NCBI GenBank assembly: GCA_003151215.1
Contig: PLXB01000180.1
Span: forward strand, 1 to 19,367
Reading direction: 5' to 3'
Source: Ignavibacteriota bacterium
Lineage (GTDB): Bacteria; Bacteroidota; Kapaibacteriia; Palsa-1295
Length of the DNA stretch: 19,367 nucleotides
Shown here in pieces: positions 3,682-14,670 of this stretch. Made by a program: the position numbers and the translations under genes. Each line of letters begins with the position of its first letter. Positions within the stretch are counted from its first letter, which is position 1. The notes beneath the pieces were generated by a model. It was not told the origin of the DNA. It did no database searches and was given only the letters and a program-made list of their open reading frames with translations.

Positions 3682-6570
3682 ATGCCTGCACCGCAAAAGA
3701 TCATTGATCTCGTTGAAAATTTCGATAGAAATATCGATCAGCTTAAACGCGCGCAGAACGAAACTCAGGTCAGAGTTGAGTTCATCGACCCCATGTTCTC
3801 TATGCTTGGATGGGATATGGATAACTCCATCGGTGCGGCAATGCAATATCAGGATGTTATTCATGAAGATCAATTAAAGATCGGCGGAACATCGAAAGCT
3901 CCGGATTACGGATTCCGAATCGGTGGCACGTTGAAATTTTTTGTCGAAGCAAAGAAGCCTTCGGTATATCTCAAAGAAGATTCTGCTCCTGCCTATCAGG
4001 TTCGCAATTACGGATGGAATAAAAAACTTAGTATCTGCGTCCTCACCGATTTTGAAGAGTTCGCCATTTACGATTGCACCGTAAAACCAAAACCAACCGA
4101 TAAGCCTTCGGTTGCCAGAGTCGATTATTTCACTTATAAAGATTACATCAATAAATGGGATGAGATCGCCGGTATCTTTTCCAAAGATTCCGTCATTAAA
4201 GGGAATTTCGATAAGTTCGCCGCGGGAAGCAAGGGCAAACGCGGCACGACGACTGTTGATAAAGATATTCTTCTGACCATCGAGCATTGGCGTGAAATCC
4301 TTGCGAAGAATATTGCAAAGAATAATAAGATTTCTGAAGAAGAATTAAAATTTGCAACACAGCGAATTTTGGATAGAATTATATTCTTGAGGATTTGCGA
4401 GGCGCGAGCCATTGAAGAAGATGGAAGACTTTTGGAAGCGGTTAAGAATAACAATTCATTCAAGAATCTTTTCTCGCTCTTTCAAGCCGCAGATAACCGC
4501 TATAACTCCGGGTTGTTCTATTTCCGTAAAGGCGATAAGGCGCATAAGAGCGATGCCGAACTTGATACGATCTCACCGAATCTGAAACTTGATGATAAGG
4601 TCATCAAAGAGATCATCGAAAATCTTTACTATCCGAAGAGCCAGTATCTTTTCGATGTTATACCTGCCGATATTCTCGGTCAGGTTTATGAGCAGTTCTT
4701 AGGCAAGGTCATCCGCATGACATCGGGCGGAATGGTGAAGATCGAAGAGAAGCCCGAAGTCCGCAAAGCAGGCGGAGTCTATTATACACCGACCTATATT
4801 GTGGATTACATCGTCAAGAACACGGTCGGAAAGCTTTTAGAAGAAAATCCAAGTAATGTCATTGCGAGAACGGCTTCAGCCGTTCGTGGCAATCTCAAAT
4901 CTTCAAAAAAGAATGAAAGCCCGAGGACTTTAAATATTCTCGATCCGGCTTGCGGCTCCGGTTCATTCCTTTTAGGTGCTTATAACTATCTACTGAATTC
5001 ATATCTCCATGGATATTCGCAGTATGCCGCTGAGATAATAAAACAAAAGAATTCGCCCATCTATGAAATAGGTAATGGCGCTTACGCCCTAACCACTCCA
5101 GAACGCAAACGCATACTACTCGAACATATCTACGGCGTAGATATAGATGAGCAAGCCGTGGAAGTGGCGAAGCTGAACCTGATGCTCAAATGCCTTGAAG
5201 GCGAAGCAGGCACAAATCTGAAACTATCAGTTGAGCGCATTCTGCCTGATCTCTCTGAGAATATCAAATGCGGCAACTCGCTGATCGGTCCGGATTTCAG
5301 CGACGGACTTTTTTCTGGTGATGACAAAAAGACTAATCCATTTGATTGGAATAGGGAATTCCCAGATATTATGAAGCGAGGTGGATTTGATACGATAATT
5401 GGGAATCCACCATGGGGTGCAATGTTTTCTGCAGAAGAAAAAAAATATTTGGTCAATCAGTTTCAAATTGTACCCTCAAAAACAAAAGATAGCTATTTCT
5501 ATTTTCTTTTTAATTCTTTTCGAATCGCAAAAAGTGAAGGAATGGTCGGGCTAATTTTACCAAATACCTGGCTGTTAATTAACAATGCAAACAACATTCG
5601 TGAAGAGCTTTTAAGATATCGAATATTTGAAATAGTTGACTTGGGTGATGGTGTTTTCAAAAAAGCAATTGTAGAAAGTTCAACAATAATTGCTCAAAAA
5701 ATTTTAGATACGGAAACACCTGTTCAGGTCAGAAGAGAAAAGAGAAGAGAAACAATCTCTGAAAATCTAATAAATAAAGCAACTTGGTTAAAAGATCCAC
5801 TGCGAAGAATTGCTATCGAAAGGGATGAGTATTTTGATAATATTCTTTCAAAAATTTCGATCGGTTCGGAATTATTTGGTGAGAACAACGAGATTATTTT
5901 TGGCATTAAACCCTATCAAGTCGGGTATGGTGTACCAGTGCAAACAAAAGAAATGCAAGATGAAAGAATTTATCATTCATCGACTAAGAAATCTGACGAG
6001 TGGAAGCCATTACTCGTAGGTGGAAACATTAGCAAGTATATCATTAATTACCCTGGGAATCAGTATATTAGATACGGTAAAGGTCTAATGTATGCATCGA
6101 ACGAAGAGAAGATGTTGTCACCGAAAATCTTGCTTAGGAGGACTAGTGACAACATCAAGGTTAGTTATGACGACCTGAAATTTTATCCGCAAAACTCTCT
6201 TTTTATTGTTACCTCAAAAAAATTCGATTTAAAATATCTGACAGCTTTACTTAATAGCAAACTGTTTGACTATGTGTATAAAAAGAAATGCCCGCAGATT
6301 GGAAAAATATTTGCTGAAGTGAAGCCCAGTATAATCAAAGAATTGCCAATAAAAGAAATTAATGGCAATAGGAAGATACAGGATAAACTTATCACCCTCG
6401 TCGATCGCATGCTCGAATTGAACAAGGAATTACCGAAGATAAAAACGCCGAATGAAAAAACGCGAATAGAGCGCCTCGTCGCAGCGACAGATTCGGAAAT
6501 TGATAAATTGGTTTATGAGTTGTATGGGCTGAGCGAGGAGGAGGTGAAGGTGGTGGAGGGTGAAAAATAA
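3682..6570 (+). CDS. Type IIG (Eco57I-like) restriction enzyme and N6-adenine methyltransferase
   Basis: This 962-residue chain appears to combine cleavage, methylation and target recognition. Residues 25-145 look like a type I HsdR-N-like nuclease domain, with ETQVRVEFIDPMF, then Asp75 and EAKK (89-92) as a PD-(D/E)xK-type site. The methyltransferase core has SAM motif I LDPACGSGSFL (420-430), IYGVDIDEQAVEVAKLNL (483-500) and catalytic motif IV IIGNPPW (573-579), the NPPW form of N6-adenine enzymes. Residues about 735-900 resemble a TaqI-type specificity domain, and 900-950 is helical. A palindromic repeat forms residues 393-405. Codons from about residue 545 onward look more AT-rich than the first half, as is common where specificity regions are swapped. 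No separate S or R subunit gene is nearby. The recognition site cannot be read from the sequence. Confidence 0.92.
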   Translation: MPAPQKIIDLVENFDRNIDQLKRAQNETQVRVEFIDPMFSMLGWDMDNSIGAAMQYQDVIHEDQLKIGGTSKAPDYGFRIGGTLKFFVEAKKPSVYLKEDSAPAYQVRNYGWNKKLSICVLTDFEEFAIYDCTVKPKPTDKPSVARVDYFTYKDYINKWDEIAGIFSKDSVIKGNFDKFAAGSKGKRGTTTVDKDILLTIEHWREILAKNIAKNNKISEEELKFATQRILDRIIFLRICEARAIEEDGRLLEAVKNNNSFKNLFSLFQAADNRYNSGLFYFRKGDKAHKSDAELDTISPNLKLDDKVIKEIIENLYYPKSQYLFDVIPADILGQVYEQFLGKVIRMTSGGMVKIEEKPEVRKAGGVYYTPTYIVDYIVKNTVGKLLEENPSNVIARTASAVRGNLKSSKKNESPRTLNILDPACGSGSFLLGAYNYLLNSYLHGYSQYAAEIIKQKNSPIYEIGNGAYALTTPERKRILLEHIYGVDIDEQAVEVAKLNLMLKCLEGEAGTNLKLSVERILPDLSENIKCGNSLIGPDFSDGLFSGDDKKTNPFDWNREFPDIMKRGGFDTIIGNPPWGAMFSAEEKKYLVNQFQIVPSKTKDSYFYFLFNSFRIAKSEGMVGLILPNTWLLINNANNIREELLRYRIFEIVDLGDGVFKKAIVESSTIIAQKILDTETPVQVRREKRRETISENLINKATWLKDPLRRIAIERDEYFDNILSKISIGSELFGENNEIIFGIKPYQVGYGVPVQTKEMQDERIYHSSTKKSDEWKPLLVGGNISKYIINYPGNQYIRYGKGLMYASNEEKMLSPKILLRRTSDNIKVSYDDLKFYPQNSLFIVTSKKFDLKYLTALLNSKLFDYVYKKKCPQIGKIFAEVKPSIIKELPIKEINGNRKIQDKLITLVDRMLELNKELPKIKTPNEKTRIERLVAATDSEIDKLVYELYGLSEEEVKVVEGEK
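4858..4896 (+). repeat. Palindromic repeat unit inserted in frame in the type IIG gene
   Basis: The unit begins GTCATTGCGAG and ends GGCAATCTC, with a perfect inner hairpin GAACGGCT-tc-AGCCGTTC (4868-4885) and an outer ATTGC/GCAAT pair. It shares head, hairpin and tail architecture with the intergenic units at 1333-1373 and 1413-1457. It is exactly 39 bases long (13 codons, residues 393-405) and keeps the frame. It sits in the linker between helix VGKLLEENP and SAM motif I. Confidence 0.85.
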
Positions 6571-10012: not shown

Positions 10013-10077
10013 TGGTAATTTACTCCTTAAATGATGTTTAAATAAATAGGAACAACAAAAATAATTATTGCAACAGA

Positions 10078-10103
10078 TAACGCTTTTCAGCGCAAATTGT
10101 TAC
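10078..10103 (-). promoter_or_regulatory. ECF sigma-type promoter of lipoprotein paralog 1
   Basis: On the minus strand GTAAC (10103-10099) and CGTTA (10082-10078) are separated by exactly 16 bases, the layout of ECF promoters (an AAC-type -35 and a CGT-type -10). The start codon is about 65 bases downstream. The promoter of the sister gene at 11348-11373 matches it in both boxes, spacing and flanks (TGTAAC, GCGTTAT, TGTTGCAA), while the spacer sequences differ. Confidence 0.7.
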
Positions 10104-10154
10104 AGATATTCCATGCGGGGGTAACAATCGTATTGCTAACTCTTATCGACTCAC

Positions 10155-11280: not shown

Positions 11281-11347
11281 TGTTAATTATGCTTCAAGAT
11301 GATTGATGAACAAAAAGGGGGATAGACTAAATAAGTGTTGCAACACA

Positions 11348-11373
11348 TAACGCATCCCCATGAAAAAAGTTAC
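11348..11373 (-). promoter_or_regulatory. ECF sigma-type promoter of lipoprotein paralog 2
   Basis: On the minus strand GTAAC (11373-11369) and CGTTA (11352-11348) lie 16 bases apart, in the same arrangement as at 10078-10103. The start codon is about 68 bases downstream. The rest of 11374-11603 has no gene I can support; a 75-codon plus-strand frame from 11360 overlaps this promoter and looks like chance. Confidence 0.7.
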
Positions 11374-11603
11374 AGGGATTTCACGTCCGATAGAAAGCAA
11401 TCTTATCTTACGAACATACAATCGGGGAGCTGAACCGGATTCACCGGAAAAACTGAAAATTACAAAAATTCGGAGAAAACCTTTGAATCAAAGACAGGTA
11501 AAGAATTATACAACGAAAATCATCCTTAATGAAACAGAATTGAATCCAAGACCTACGCTGGCCTGTATCACCAGTAAGAATTTTTAAACGATTCATTTTA
11601 CTT

Positions 11604-12011
11604 ATGAACTCAACACTATCTGCCGAATCCTCCCCTGGGTTGACTAAAGACAACTCACATGTTCATTCTTTCCATATTCCCATTTTCATATTGGTAGTTC
11701 TTACTGCAGCGCCGCATCTTTATCTTGCTTCGCAGCCCGATGAAGAACTGCGTTCTGCTTTCTTGTTGAATGGTTTAGGATATCTGGCATTAGTAACTGC
11801 CTTTGTTCTTCCTCAATTCAGATCATTCCATGAACCCCTGCGCTGGATATTGCTGGGATATACCGGTCTCACGATCATCCTGTGGTTTTTCTTTGGAAGT
11901 CCATCGGAGGGGCAGCTTGATCCGTTTGATCTTTCGGTCAAGGTAGTCGAGTTACTGTTAGTGATATTTCTCTTTCTTGATAAAAAACGGGAAATGATGA
12001 ATGCTCATTAG
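11604..12011 (+). CDS. Small four-TM membrane protein of unknown function
   Basis: The 135-residue product has about 22 polar residues followed by four hydrophobic helices (about 24-43, 51-70, 78-97 and 109-125) and a basic C-terminus (DKKREMMNAH). I do not recognise a family. Its last 11 bases overlap the start of the next gene, so translation of the two is probably coupled. No TAnnTTTG box or clear ribosome binding site is visible before the ATG. It probably lies in the inner membrane. Confidence 0.65.
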   Translation: MNSTLSAESSPGLTKDNSHVHSFHIPIFILVVLTAAPHLYLASQPDEELRSAFLLNGLGYLALVTAFVLPQFRSFHEPLRWILLGYTGLTIILWFFFGSPSEGQLDPFDLSVKVVELLLVIFLFLDKKREMMNAH

Positions 12012-12456
12012 GATCAGGAAAGTGAAAGTAAGGGACATATTACGATTGGCTTCCACTGTTTCGTCGCTTATTTTTGGTATTGCCGATCGTGCAGATGCGA
12101 TCCCTTTATTCGCCAGAAAATATAATACGACGTGTTTTACCTGCCACACTGCAGAGCCGCTTCTGAATGATTTTGGCAGGAGGTTTCAGGCTGCGGGGTA
12201 TCAGCTTCCAGGCTCGGGCAGTGATTCGCAAACCGCATTCGATCAAACGACTTTCCCTTTAGCCATTCTGGCACAACCGATGATCTCTCATACGGAAATG
12301 ACCGATCGCCTCGTAAACACCACGACGGTGAACACTTCATTCTCCGGAGTAGAAGTAGGAATCTTCAGCAGCGGATCGCTTGGAGCGAATTTCTCGTATT
12401 TCACCGAATTACCCGTGGCGATCAGAGAAAATCTGGGAACTCAAGCTATACGGTGA
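12001..12456 (+). CDS. Truncated CxxCH (cytochrome c-like) exported protein
   Basis: The 151-residue frame has a signal-like N-terminus (hydrophobic about 13-28, possible cleavage after ADA at 33). It then has IPLFARKYNTTCFTCHT with a heme-binding CFTCH (45-49), and FGRRFQAAGYQLP. This N-terminal block is typical of larger exported proteins, usually several hundred residues, with one CxxCH followed by a long beta-rich, outer-membrane-like region. Here the frame stops soon after SYFTELPVAIRENLG. A shifted frame just downstream reads a further plausible stretch, LIPNIPSKFRVW, before stopping. I read this as a gene that has lost its 3' part, although a short functional protein is possible. It overlaps the preceding gene by 11 bases. 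Confidence 0.6.
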   Translation: MLIRIRKVKVRDILRLASTVSSLIFGIADRADAIPLFARKYNTTCFTCHTAEPLLNDFGRRFQAAGYQLPGSGSDSQTAFDQTTFPLAILAQPMISHTEMTDRLVNTTTVNTSFSGVEVGIFSSGSLGANFSYFTELPVAIRENLGTQAIR

Positions 12457-12648
12457 TAAGTTGATTCCAAATATCCCCTCTAAGTTTCGCGTTTGGTGAT
12501 AATTCAGAATGTCACAGAAGCTTAGGTCTTCATAAAATGATTTCTCTATCCCCAATTCCCTTTTAGTTTCGTTCTCAGTTACGGTGTGATTATCCAAACT
12601 CCCCCGATAAATACTTTTCATTCAATCCACATCATTCAGAACCTGTAC
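12457..12648 (+). pseudogene. Possible decayed 3' remnant of the CxxCH gene
   Basis: There is no intact gene here. Immediately after the stop, the +1 frame gives LIPNIPSKFRVW before stops, as if the reading had continued from the truncated gene. Further short open pieces follow. The region also separates that gene from the sigma factor. No TAnnTTTG box or GTAAC-N16-CGTTA promoter is visible before the sigma gene. Confidence 0.3.
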
Positions 12649-13233
12649 ATGGAGCAAACGGATGAGTATCTGCTTCAGGAAATAGCAAAGGGGGATAGCG
12701 CAGCTTTTTCCGAATTTTACGACCGGTACTCGCGCCTCATTTATGGTGCTCTTCTCAGCATGCTTAAGAATAAGGAGGAATCCAAAGATATCCTTCAGGA
12801 TGTGTTTATGAAGGTGTGGCGCAGAGGTAATACATTTAAGCCCGAATTAGGCTCGCCGAGAAATTGGCTTATCCGAATCGCACATAATATGGCAATCAAT
12901 CACATCCGCTCGGCACGACTGCGCCGTGAGAAGGCGTCGATCACTATCTCAGACAATGATACCGCATTGCTCCTGCGTGAATTTGAGCTTATTGAGGATA
13001 CATTGTTAGATAACGCCATCCTTAGGGACCGAAAAGAAATGCTCACTCTTGCATTTGAGACTCTTCCGAAAGATAGAGTGAACTTGCTCGATATGGCCTT
13101 TTTTAAAGGATACTCGCATTTGGAGATCTCTCGACAATTAGAGATGCCCTTAGGTACAGTTAAGACGAAGATTCGAAGAAGCCTGTTGGCATTGCGAAAA
13201 TCTCTGTTATTTGCAGAAAACGACTTTACGTAA
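12649..13233 (+). CDS. ECF-family RNA polymerase sigma factor
   Basis: The chosen ATG at 12649 gives 194 residues; an in-frame ATG at 12586 would add 21 residues unlike the family. Region 2 spans about 20-88, with DILQDVFMKVWRR (47-59, region 2.2) and NWLIRIAHNMAINHIR (72-87, regions 2.3-2.4). Region 4 spans about 131-185, with the helix-turn-helix GYSHLEISRQLEMPLGTVKT (154-173). There is no region 1 or 3, as in group 4 sigma factors. The protein recruits RNA polymerase to special promoters until held by an anti-sigma. The stop overlaps the ATG of a 40-codon frame (TAATG), and the anti-sigma-like gene follows. The GTAAC-N16-CGTTA promoters at 10078 and 11348 are likely targets. Confidence 0.95.
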   Translation: MEQTDEYLLQEIAKGDSAAFSEFYDRYSRLIYGALLSMLKNKEESKDILQDVFMKVWRRGNTFKPELGSPRNWLIRIAHNMAINHIRSARLRREKASITISDNDTALLLREFELIEDTLLDNAILRDRKEMLTLAFETLPKDRVNLLDMAFFKGYSHLEISRQLEMPLGTVKTKIRRSLLALRKSLLFAENDFT

Positions 13234-13355
13234 TGAGTATAGTTTCAATGAATCCAAGTTTATCGCTCGCATGTAATTATAGTGGTGAAGGTGAAAAAGA
13301 ACTTTTGAAGAAAGCACGAATTTCCTATCCCACAAGCAAGCAGCTTTTTCGGTAA
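13233..13355 (+). CDS. Candidate 40-residue protein between sigma and anti-sigma genes
   Basis: A short open frame begins at the ATG that shares its A with the sigma stop codon (TAATG, 13231-13235). It ends with TAA at 13353-13355, four bases before the ATG of the anti-sigma-like gene. It fills the gap exactly. The peptide starts MSIVSMNPSLSLACNYSGEG and ends with a basic stretch (KELLKKARISYPTSKQLFR). It has no TM helix and no motif I know. It could be a small regulator, or just a translated bridge that couples the two genes. Confidence 0.4.
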   Translation: MSIVSMNPSLSLACNYSGEGEKELLKKARISYPTSKQLFR

Positions 13356-13359
13356 GATT

Positions 13360-14670
13360 ATGAAACAAATAGATCGCTCTATGAATGAGACAGCGCTGCA
13401 AATCCGGCGCTACAATCTCGGTTTGATGACGCATGAGGAAAATGCGGCATTTGAGCGCACACTTTCACAATCTCCTGAACTTCAGAGGGAATTTCGTAAT
13501 GTCGGAAATATGCTCTCTGCAACATACCTCTACCTTGCAGAGGGAATGCCTGAGCCCGAAAAGGAATTGAAAGATACTCTGCTTGCAAGAATAAAAGGAA
13601 CCTGGGATTCTGAACGTGCTGAAATGTTGGTTAGCGGAGCGATTGCATCATCCGTCGGATTAATTCCTTCGACGACCAGAGATGCTCGCCCTTATGCTGC
13701 CGGAGGCGATCCTACTGTCGGGATTTCTTCAGGCATAAAGAAAATCATTACTCCTTTAATTATAGTAATGGCTGCCACCCTTTTCCTGATCGGAATGAGT
13801 AATTCGATATCAAGTGAAAGTCCTAATGCTCCTATCTCTTCTTTTGAACAAAACCATACAGAAGCGGGCGCAGATATGAACCGCAATTTTCAAGTTCTGT
13901 CGCAGGCGTCTGGGGGATCAAAACGTTCTTCAATACTTTTTACAAGTACAAAGAATACTAATGTTCATAATACTATCACGGCTTCGCAACTTCCGCCAAA
14001 AGATAATGCGGAAGAGAATCTGCGAATTTTTGATATACGTTCGGTCGAAACTTTACTGCCTGTCATTACATCGGAAAATCCGATTTTGGCTAAGCAAGAT
14101 AAGAATGTTGCAAATCCATTGGATCATACTTCGATCGCAAATGAGAATGATGCTCTTTATTCGGAAATGGCCTGGGGTGAAAGAATATCGTTTTCTATCA
14201 GCAGAATCTCAACCCTGAAATTTTATCCGGGACGACTGGATATGGCTACTGTTCCTCCGATGAATAATTGGGGCGCAGCCTTGAAATATGCAGTCACTCC
14301 GGTTATTGCAATCGGTATCGAAGCAGGAAGGGAAACATTCCCGTTCTATCGTGAGAAGAGCGATGATATGTATGATGAATTTTACTCTGTTACCTGGGGA
14401 GGTGCTTCGGTTACTGTTTCCGATCCCGAGCTTGAGTTTTTTGATTGTCATCCCGAAGCAAGAGCCGTTGCCGGTTTCGGCACGGCAGGTCCGATGGGTA
14501 AAATCTCTGCAGGCTTCATTTGGCAGCCTTCACATACTATCTCTTTCTCTCCTGAATTAGAATACACCGGAGTCTATGTCAAAAATACCGGCGTATTTAT
14601 CGAAGGTCAGGATGGCGTTTCGAGCGGGGGAAAACTCGGGTTTACGGCATCGATGGCCATTCGCTTTTAA
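13360..14670 (+). CDS. Anti-sigma factor with C-terminal beta-barrel-like domain
   Basis: The 436-residue chain has four parts. Residues 9-75 resemble an anti-sigma N-terminal domain without zinc ligands (RRYNLGLMTHEENAAFERTL, then SPELQREF). Residues 127-146 form one TM helix (IKKIITPLIIVMAATLFLIG). Residues 147-265 are a polar Ser/Asn-rich linker. Residues about 272-436 are alternating amphipathic strands with many aromatic and glycine residues, ending in the C-terminal Phe typical of outer membrane proteins (FTASMAIRF). The simplest model is a cytoplasmic sigma-binding domain tethered through the inner membrane and periplasm to an outer-membrane barrel. Dual-membrane-spanning anti-sigma factors of this kind (Dma proteins with partner Das sigma factors) have been described in Bacteroides. 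An alternative start is ATG 13381. The barrel call rests on pattern, not homology. Confidence 0.75.
   Translation: MKQIDRSMNETALQIRRYNLGLMTHEENAAFERTLSQSPELQREFRNVGNMLSATYLYLAEGMPEPEKELKDTLLARIKGTWDSERAEMLVSGAIASSVGLIPSTTRDARPYAAGGDPTVGISSGIKKIITPLIIVMAATLFLIGMSNSISSESPNAPISSFEQNHTEAGADMNRNFQVLSQASGGSKRSSILFTSTKNTNVHNTITASQLPPKDNAEENLRIFDIRSVETLLPVITSENPILAKQDKNVANPLDHTSIANENDALYSEMAWGERISFSISRISTLKFYPGRLDMATVPPMNNWGAALKYAVTPVIAIGIEAGRETFPFYREKSDDMYDEFYSVTWGGASVTVSDPELEFFDCHPEARAVAGFGTAGPMGKISAGFIWQPSHTISFSPELEYTGVYVKNTGVFIEGQDGVSSGGKLGFTASMAIRF

What the first reader, a model, noticed from the sequence alone, without database searches (positions are those of the whole stretch)
12649..14670. 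ECF sigma locus with an anti-sigma that seems to span both membranes
Directly after an ECF sigma gene lies a 436-residue protein with a zinc-free anti-sigma-like N-terminus, one TM helix (127-146), a polar linker of about 120 residues, and a strand-rich C-terminal domain of about 165 residues ending in Phe. In one chain this would connect RNA polymerase control with the outer membrane, without a TonB-dependent receptor or a separate sensor. From established knowledge, dual-membrane-spanning anti-sigma factors (Dma/Das) were described in Bacteroides. This would be an instance in a different FCB lineage, with a different, linked candidate regulon.
Basis: partly seen in the sequence, partly recalled or inferred. 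Interest (0 to 1): 0.72.

Follow-up and report, generated by a model that had tools for sequence, protein, structure and literature searches.

The report
Anti-sigma factor anchored in outer membrane
A single bacterial protein is predicted to reach from the gene-control machinery inside the cell, across both membranes, to a barrel in the outer membrane, and related genomes hold a large family of similar proteins, almost always beside a sigma factor gene.

Summary
An ECF sigma gene (12649-13233) is followed by a 429/436-aa protein (to 14670) with a zinc-free anti-sigma domain, one TM helix, a polar linker of about 120 aa and a C-terminal domain that AlphaFold2 builds as an 8-stranded barrel; the best PDB matches are outer-membrane barrels.

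It is not isolated. In the nearest GTDB class, 81 of 294 genomes have strong family hits (E<=1e-25), with up to 8 full-length copies among ten genomes counted. Forty members fetched from new places all had an ECF sigma ORF directly upstream.

The Dma analogy fits the architecture, but membership is not shown. Bacteroidia Dma-like proteins have a different N-terminus, a separate sigma clade and a barrel only marginally similar.

The window's protein also looks like a chimera. Its sigma, and less uniquely its anti-sigma domain, are closest to pairs whose anti-sigma is a soluble ChrR-type cupin protein; its barrel is closest to barrel anti-sigmas of the same order. One test of the rival sigma placement is borderline (AU p 0.06).

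The linked regulon is not supported. Outer-membrane insertion, sigma binding and signal are inferred, not shown.

The parts
12649..13233 (+). ECF sigma factor gene (194 aa from the ATG; a longer GTG-start ORF begins at 12586)
   Evidence: Pfam Sigma70_r2/r4_2; closest sigmas are partners of cupin anti-sigmas
13381..14670 (+). [quoted passage not shown]
13381..13614 (+). zinc-free anti-sigma domain (residues 8-85)
   Evidence: NCBIfam N-terminal matches below cut-off; best relative L107 (ASD plus cupin), then short anti-sigmas with or without cupin
13738..13815 (+). single transmembrane helix (residues 127-152; hydropathy peak 129-147)
13816..14169 (+). polar, probably disordered linker, residues 153-270
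   Evidence: pLDDT 22-34 in blocks 151-270; 46% P/S/T/N/Q/G in a 122-residue stretch
14170..14667 (+). C-terminal 8-stranded outer-membrane-type beta-barrel (residues 271-436), ends in Phe

Best explanation
The 12649-14670 pair is an ECF sigma factor and its one-chain, envelope-spanning anti-sigma factor. Inferred working: the N-terminal ~80 residues hold the sigma factor at the inner membrane; one TM helix and a flexible linker of ~120 residues cross the periplasm; the C-terminal 8-stranded barrel sits in the outer membrane and is the sensor. When the barrel is not inserted or is disturbed (assembly stress, loss of the inner-outer membrane connection, or an external ligand), the chain is cut in the periplasm or membrane and sigma is released. 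The protein is probably a domain swap: sigma and anti-sigma domain come from a lineage whose anti-sigma is otherwise a soluble ChrR-type cupin protein, and the TM-linker-barrel half comes from a large class-wide family of barrel anti-sigma factors. Shown here: gene order, domain anatomy, predicted barrel fold, the family. Supported but not settled: the swap. Inferred: outer-membrane insertion, sigma binding, signal and release.
Confidence: 0.7

Rival explanations
1. The protein is a true Dma family member (Bacteroides Dma/Das, ECF21) that has diverged in another lineage.
For: Same four-part architecture and gene order as described for Dma (PMC13088901, introduction and passages read). Profile comparison of the barrels is above reversed controls: E 1.2e-4 and probability 55% one way, E 0.0019 and 14% the other, against 0.14-0.27 reversed.
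Against: Class N-termini and Dma-like N-termini do not align (the window's own N-terminus was not in that profile). Sigma partners of 4 Dma-like proteins form a separate clade, 99*. The window protein has no Pfam barrel hit, and OMP_b-brl_2 is not among the 16 families met by the 39 members of A2, while 4 of 4 Dma-like proteins pass it. Weak likeness is expected between any 8-stranded OM barrels (established knowledge).
Confidence: 0.15
2. The C-terminal domain is a soluble periplasmic 8-stranded barrel (lipocalin- or avidin-like ligand binder) rather than an outer-membrane barrel.
Confidence: 0.12
3. The anti-sigma is constitutively cut; the barrel lives as a separate OM protein and the N-terminal part acts alone, so no physical bridge exists in the cell.
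For: A long, poorly conserved linker (14-45% identity) would tolerate cleavage; one short barrel ORF without an anti-sigma domain or sigma was met (L095).
Against: In the family rows listed the two ends stay in one open frame: every row listed reaches from profile position 8 or lower to 377 or higher (that list is cut at the best matches, so it favours full-length members).
Confidence: 0.15

Closest known systems
[quoted passage not shown]
   Same: Anti-sigma N-terminus, one TM helix, long disordered tether, C-terminal beta-barrel, sigma gene adjacent; works like it.
   Different: TM starts near residue 90-130 in most class members against about 48-75 in Dma-like proteins; sigma partners outside the Das-like clade; no Pfam OMP_b-brl_2 match; other lineage; here the sigma half is of cupin type.
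ChrR-type cupin anti-sigma factors (TIGR02451, Pfam Cupin_7 PF12973) with their ECF sigma
   Same: Closest sigmas met, and the best-matching anti-sigma domain (L107).
   Different: Those met here are 196-219-aa proteins without TM and with a cupin; the window protein has TM, linker and barrel instead.
Cell-surface signalling by a TonB-dependent transducer plus a FecR-type anti-sigma
   Same: Couples the outer membrane to an ECF sigma (established knowledge).
   Different: Needs two proteins; the window protein has no FecR domain and carries its own barrel.
Zinc-free anti-sigma models NF052375 and NF010501 (PRK13920)
   Same: N-terminal ~70-85 residues match weakly.
   Different: Scores far below cut-offs; C-terminal half unmatched.

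Membership tests
Dma (dual membrane-spanning anti-sigma, Bacteroides) | anti-sigma domain, one TM helix, long disordered tether, C-terminal beta-barrel in one chain | tested here: met
   (prediction); feature list from PMC13088901
Dma (dual membrane-spanning anti-sigma, Bacteroides) | adjacent ECF21 sigma factor | tested here: inconclusive
   an ECF sigma is adjacent, but no ECF21 model was available; it falls outside the clade of 4 Das-like sigmas (99*)
Dma (dual membrane-spanning anti-sigma, Bacteroides) | barrel homologous to the Dma barrel | tested here: inconclusive
   profile comparison probability 14-55% and 6% for the full alignments; no Pfam OMP_b-brl_2 in the window protein against 4 of 4 Dma-like
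Dma (dual membrane-spanning anti-sigma, Bacteroides) | N-terminal anti-sigma domain of the Dma type | tested here: inconclusive
   no alignment found by hhalign, but that comparison used the N-termini of the 34 class relatives, not the window's own
ChrR-type cupin anti-sigma | C-terminal cupin domain | tested here: not met
   no Pfam domain in the window protein at E<=1
ChrR-type cupin anti-sigma | shared sigma and anti-sigma domain lineage | tested here: inconclusive
   sigma inside the cupin-partner clade, 98*, L107 best for both halves; but AU p 0.0615 for the rival placement, and a TM-type anti-sigma (L179) is the second-best domain hit
ChrR-type cupin anti-sigma | zinc-binding anti-sigma domain (recalled for ChrR) | tested here: not met
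   no Cys and one His in residues 8-85 (sequence); the L107 cupin relative also has no Cys in that domain
FecR-type anti-sigma / TonB-dependent transducer | FecR domain in the anti-sigma, TonB receptor nearby | tested here: not met
   no such Pfam match in the 17 window ORFs scanned
OmpA/OmpW-like 8-stranded outer-membrane barrel fold | 8-stranded antiparallel barrel with alternating hydrophobic face and C-terminal aromatic | tested here: met
   (fold prediction; alternation significant for the family, not for the window sequence alone)
OmpA/OmpW-like 8-stranded outer-membrane barrel fold | insertion in the outer membrane | not testable with these tools
   needs fractionation

The most novel reading that the evidence does not exclude
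A large family of barrel-anchored anti-sigma factors, several per genome in many members of this class, would give these bacteria a set of one-chain sensors in which an outer-membrane barrel that must be folded and inserted reports directly to RNA polymerase; the barrel's own C-terminal aromatic would be the distress signal if insertion fails. The TM-linker-barrel half is a portable sensor: in the window's lineage it was joined to the sigma/anti-sigma half of a cupin-type system, turning a cytoplasmic circuit into an outer-membrane one.
Probability: 0.4. Interest if true: 0.78.

Novelty: new variant of a known kind. Interest (0 to 1): 0.62.

Why it matters
Dma is described as a class found solely among Bacteroidota and tied to ECF21 (PMC13088901). 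Here the same architecture occurs in a second family with other sigma partners, in many paralogous copies, and in one lineage apparently re-wired onto a different sigma system. That makes two questions testable: whether an outer-membrane barrel tethered to an anti-sigma senses barrel assembly, membrane spacing or a ligand; and whether this sensor half can be exchanged between sigma pathways, as the natural chimera suggests.

Tried and rejected
Regulon: the two TIGR03118 genes upstream share TGTAAC-N16-CGTTAT exactly (10077-10104 and 11347-11374, minus strand). Upstream of the sigma gene the best site has 4 mismatches. Of 13 other TIGR03118 loci of the order that were scanned (250 nt upstream, spacers 15-18; 3 fragmentary hits left out), 12 have no site within 2 mismatches and 1 (L251) has a 2-mismatch site with an 18-base spacer 209 nt upstream; none of the 13 loci holds a sigma matching the window's or an A1-type anti-sigma. 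The two genes are tandem relatives, so duplication may explain the shared site. Regulon claim dropped.

Sequence search against solved structures gave nothing significant for the whole protein, the family profile or the anti-sigma domain. The protein database gave only 5 full-length relatives and 7 hits each with the two profiles; whole-genome search reached much further. The first genome scan with the anti-sigma itself found nothing. A viral-contig scan with the RodA-type gene was empty. The full-length AF2 model is too weak to use outside the barrel. Placing the window sigma with the barrel partners: 26.6 log units worse, AU p 0.0615, not rejected.

Rows left out: A2 holds 34 of the 38 barrel-type ORFs (L091, L094, L095, L101 left out), the window and P0002-P0005 (P0001 left out as identical but for one residue). 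Five long-branch rows were dropped before the AU tests. The Dma-like set is 14 proteins from 14 loci, out of matches in 60 of 247 genomes. In one search only the best 6 candidates per genome were scored, so copy numbers there are lower bounds.

Literature: searches for dual membrane-spanning/anti-sigma, barrel/ECF/Bacteroidetes, ECF21, Dma1, barrel/tether/Bacteroidota, ECF reclassification/Ignavibacteria, Kapabacteria/sigma factor and domain fusion listed nothing that by title or abstract start describes this family; only PMC13088901 was opened (abstract, introduction, found passages). The original Dma1 paper and the EcfO paper are not held.

Full report
What is there. The window holds an ECF sigma gene (12649-13233) and, 126-147 nt further on, a 436-aa open frame ending at 14670. 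Relatives start at residue 8, so the protein is probably 429 aa. Pfam finds sigma regions 2 and 4 in the first protein and nothing in the second. NCBIfam finds weak, sub-cut-off matches of the second protein's first ~90 residues to zinc-free anti-sigma models. Hydropathy gives one TM peak, 129-147. Against four full-length homologues the C-terminal 166 residues are by far the best conserved: 62-86% identity, against 47-55% in the anti-sigma domain and 14-45% in the linker. None of 17 window ORFs scanned with Pfam is a TonB receptor or FecR protein.

A family, not a single case. The nearest genomes, by the NuoC-type ORF 817-1317 (Pfam Complex1_30kDa), are two MAGs labelled Ignavibacteriae (84%) and Bacteroidota (78%). 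A narrow profile found matches in 38 of 294 genomes of their class, five of these only in the anti-sigma part. Of 38 barrel-type ORFs in 40 fetched loci, 36 have a sigma ORF directly upstream on the same strand, one (L095, a short barrel ORF) has none, and one (L038) is cut by its contig end. A broad profile of 39 sequences gave 190 of 294 genomes at E<=1e-3, many probably only in the anti-sigma part; by hand count of the table 81 of 294 have a best match at E<=1e-25 and 70 at E<=1e-50. Of the 81 genomes, 28 supplied rows to the profile and 53 did not. For the 12 weakest of the 81 the span of the match was not listed; every row that was listed runs from profile position 8 or lower to 377 or higher. 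Forty members from places not in the profile, picked by hand from the upper part of that list, were fetched: 40 of 40 have an ECF sigma ORF upstream (gap -10 to 99 nt; sigma found with a profile of the first set's sigmas), 34 of 40 pass the TM threshold, 33 of 40 end in F, L, Y, W or I. With all candidates scored in ten genomes (five order-mates of G001, itself included, and five chosen as rich), full-length copies (match from position 10 or lower to 390 or higher, hand count) are G230 8, G237 7, G260 7, G199 6, G283 5, G080 2, and 1 each in G001, G002, G028, G106. In 79 members the linker is 97-224 residues (median 143) and the barrel 148-180 (median 157).

Comparison with Dma. Dma proteins are described as anti-sigma domain, TM helix, disordered tether and beta-barrel beside an ECF21 sigma, solely in Bacteroidota; Dma3 carries its sigma at its own N-terminus (PMC13088901, introduction and passages). 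No B. thetaiotaomicron sequence was held, so Bacteroidales-like genomes were picked by NigD and the sigma loci of two of them read. This gave Dma-like proteins, recognised by architecture: L149, L163 (beside a NigD-like gene), L164 and a sigma-TM-barrel fusion L162. A search with these matched 60 of 247 Bacteroidia genomes, and 14 proteins were analysed: in 12 of 14 the TM starts at residue 48-75; one is a sigma fusion and one shows no TM by my threshold. The first four pass Pfam OMP_b-brl_2 (4 of 4), and their sigmas form their own clade (99*). Barrel profiles of the two families align weakly (probability 55% and E 1.2e-4 one way, 14% and 0.0019 the other; reversed controls 0.14-0.27), N-termini not at all (the N-terminal profile there is that of the 34 class relatives, not the window's). 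With the class profile, 63 of 295 Bacteroidia genomes matched, nearly always in the anti-sigma, TM or linker part; two listed rows lie in the barrel part. So: works like Dma, membership not shown.

The swap. In the same-order genome G001 the closest sigma to the window's (55% identity) stands before a 198-aa protein with a similar anti-sigma domain and a ChrR-like cupin, while G001's barrel anti-sigma (L069) has a different sigma. In the sigma tree (quick method) the window falls inside the cupin-partner clade (98* with three of the five cupin partners; sister to L107, 94), and 38 barrel partners form another clade (92). The alternative placement is 26.6 log units worse, AU p 0.0615, so it is disfavoured rather than excluded. 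The anti-sigma domain tells the same story less sharply. Alone, in a set of 783 ORFs from fetched loci, it finds L107 first (3.3e-15), then the TM-bearing 176-aa L179 (1.8e-6), then cupin proteins L180 (8.1e-6) and L181 (3.5e-5), then further short proteins with a TM; no barrel protein is among the 22 rows printed, some of which are the same place fetched twice. In the class search with the anti-sigma profile, which includes L107 itself, the first four places are cupin proteins (L107, L180, L181, L174), the fifth is the protein of L179, the sixth the cupin protein L175; L179, L176, L177 and L190 have no Pfam domain. The barrel alone finds only barrel anti-sigmas in its 22 printed rows, and in the barrel tree the window's subfamily groups with L038 and L069 of the same order (99*). 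The simplest account is that the TM-linker-barrel half of a resident barrel anti-sigma was joined to the sigma/anti-sigma half of a cupin-type system; P0002-P0005 show that the join has been kept at 41-60% identity.

How it probably works (inferred). Residues 8-85 bind sigma; the helix anchors the chain in the inner membrane; the linker (the family's shortest, 97 residues, would reach about 35 nm if fully stretched, my estimate) allows the barrel to sit in the outer membrane. Release of sigma would follow cutting of the chain when the barrel is not inserted or is disturbed. By analogy with the recalled DegS-RseA pathway, where C-terminal aromatic ends of unassembled porins are the signal, the anti-sigma would here carry its own signal. 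A ligand-binding or spacing sensor is equally open.

What did not hold. The linked regulon: see Tried and rejected.

Noticed in passing
window 10077-10104 (-) and 11347-11374 (-): Both tandem TIGR03118-type genes have an exact TGTAAC-N16-CGTTAT site with further conserved bases (GCGTTATnTGTTGCAA); looks like a shared promoter of an ECF type, sigma unknown.
   Followed up: partly
window 12001-12456: 151-aa ORF with a CxxCH haem motif (seen by eye; no Pfam hit at its cut-off) that ends before the sigma gene; may be the N-terminal remnant of a longer protein.
   Followed up: no
L162 121-1764 (-) and L214 1129-2832 (+): Sigma-TM-barrel fusions in Bacteroidia genomes, like Dma3 as described for B. 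thetaiotaomicron.
   Followed up: partly
L107 2140-4221 (-): DUF4331 protein with a type IX secretion sorting domain next to the cupin-type sigma/anti-sigma pair.
   Followed up: no
L038 794-1477 (-) and L069 548-1234 (-): Similar 227/228-aa probable lipoproteins (by eye) directly downstream of the barrel anti-sigma in two same-order genomes; no Pfam hit; candidate partner or target.
   Followed up: partly
L119 1486-2583 (+): A Bacteroidia protein that joins the anti-sigma-like N-terminus and TM to a trypsin-like protease domain (Trypsin_2 1.3e-24).
   Followed up: partly
window 3682-6570: 962-aa combined restriction-modification type enzyme (Pfam Eco57I 6.4e-34, TaqI_C 1.3e-18).
   Followed up: partly
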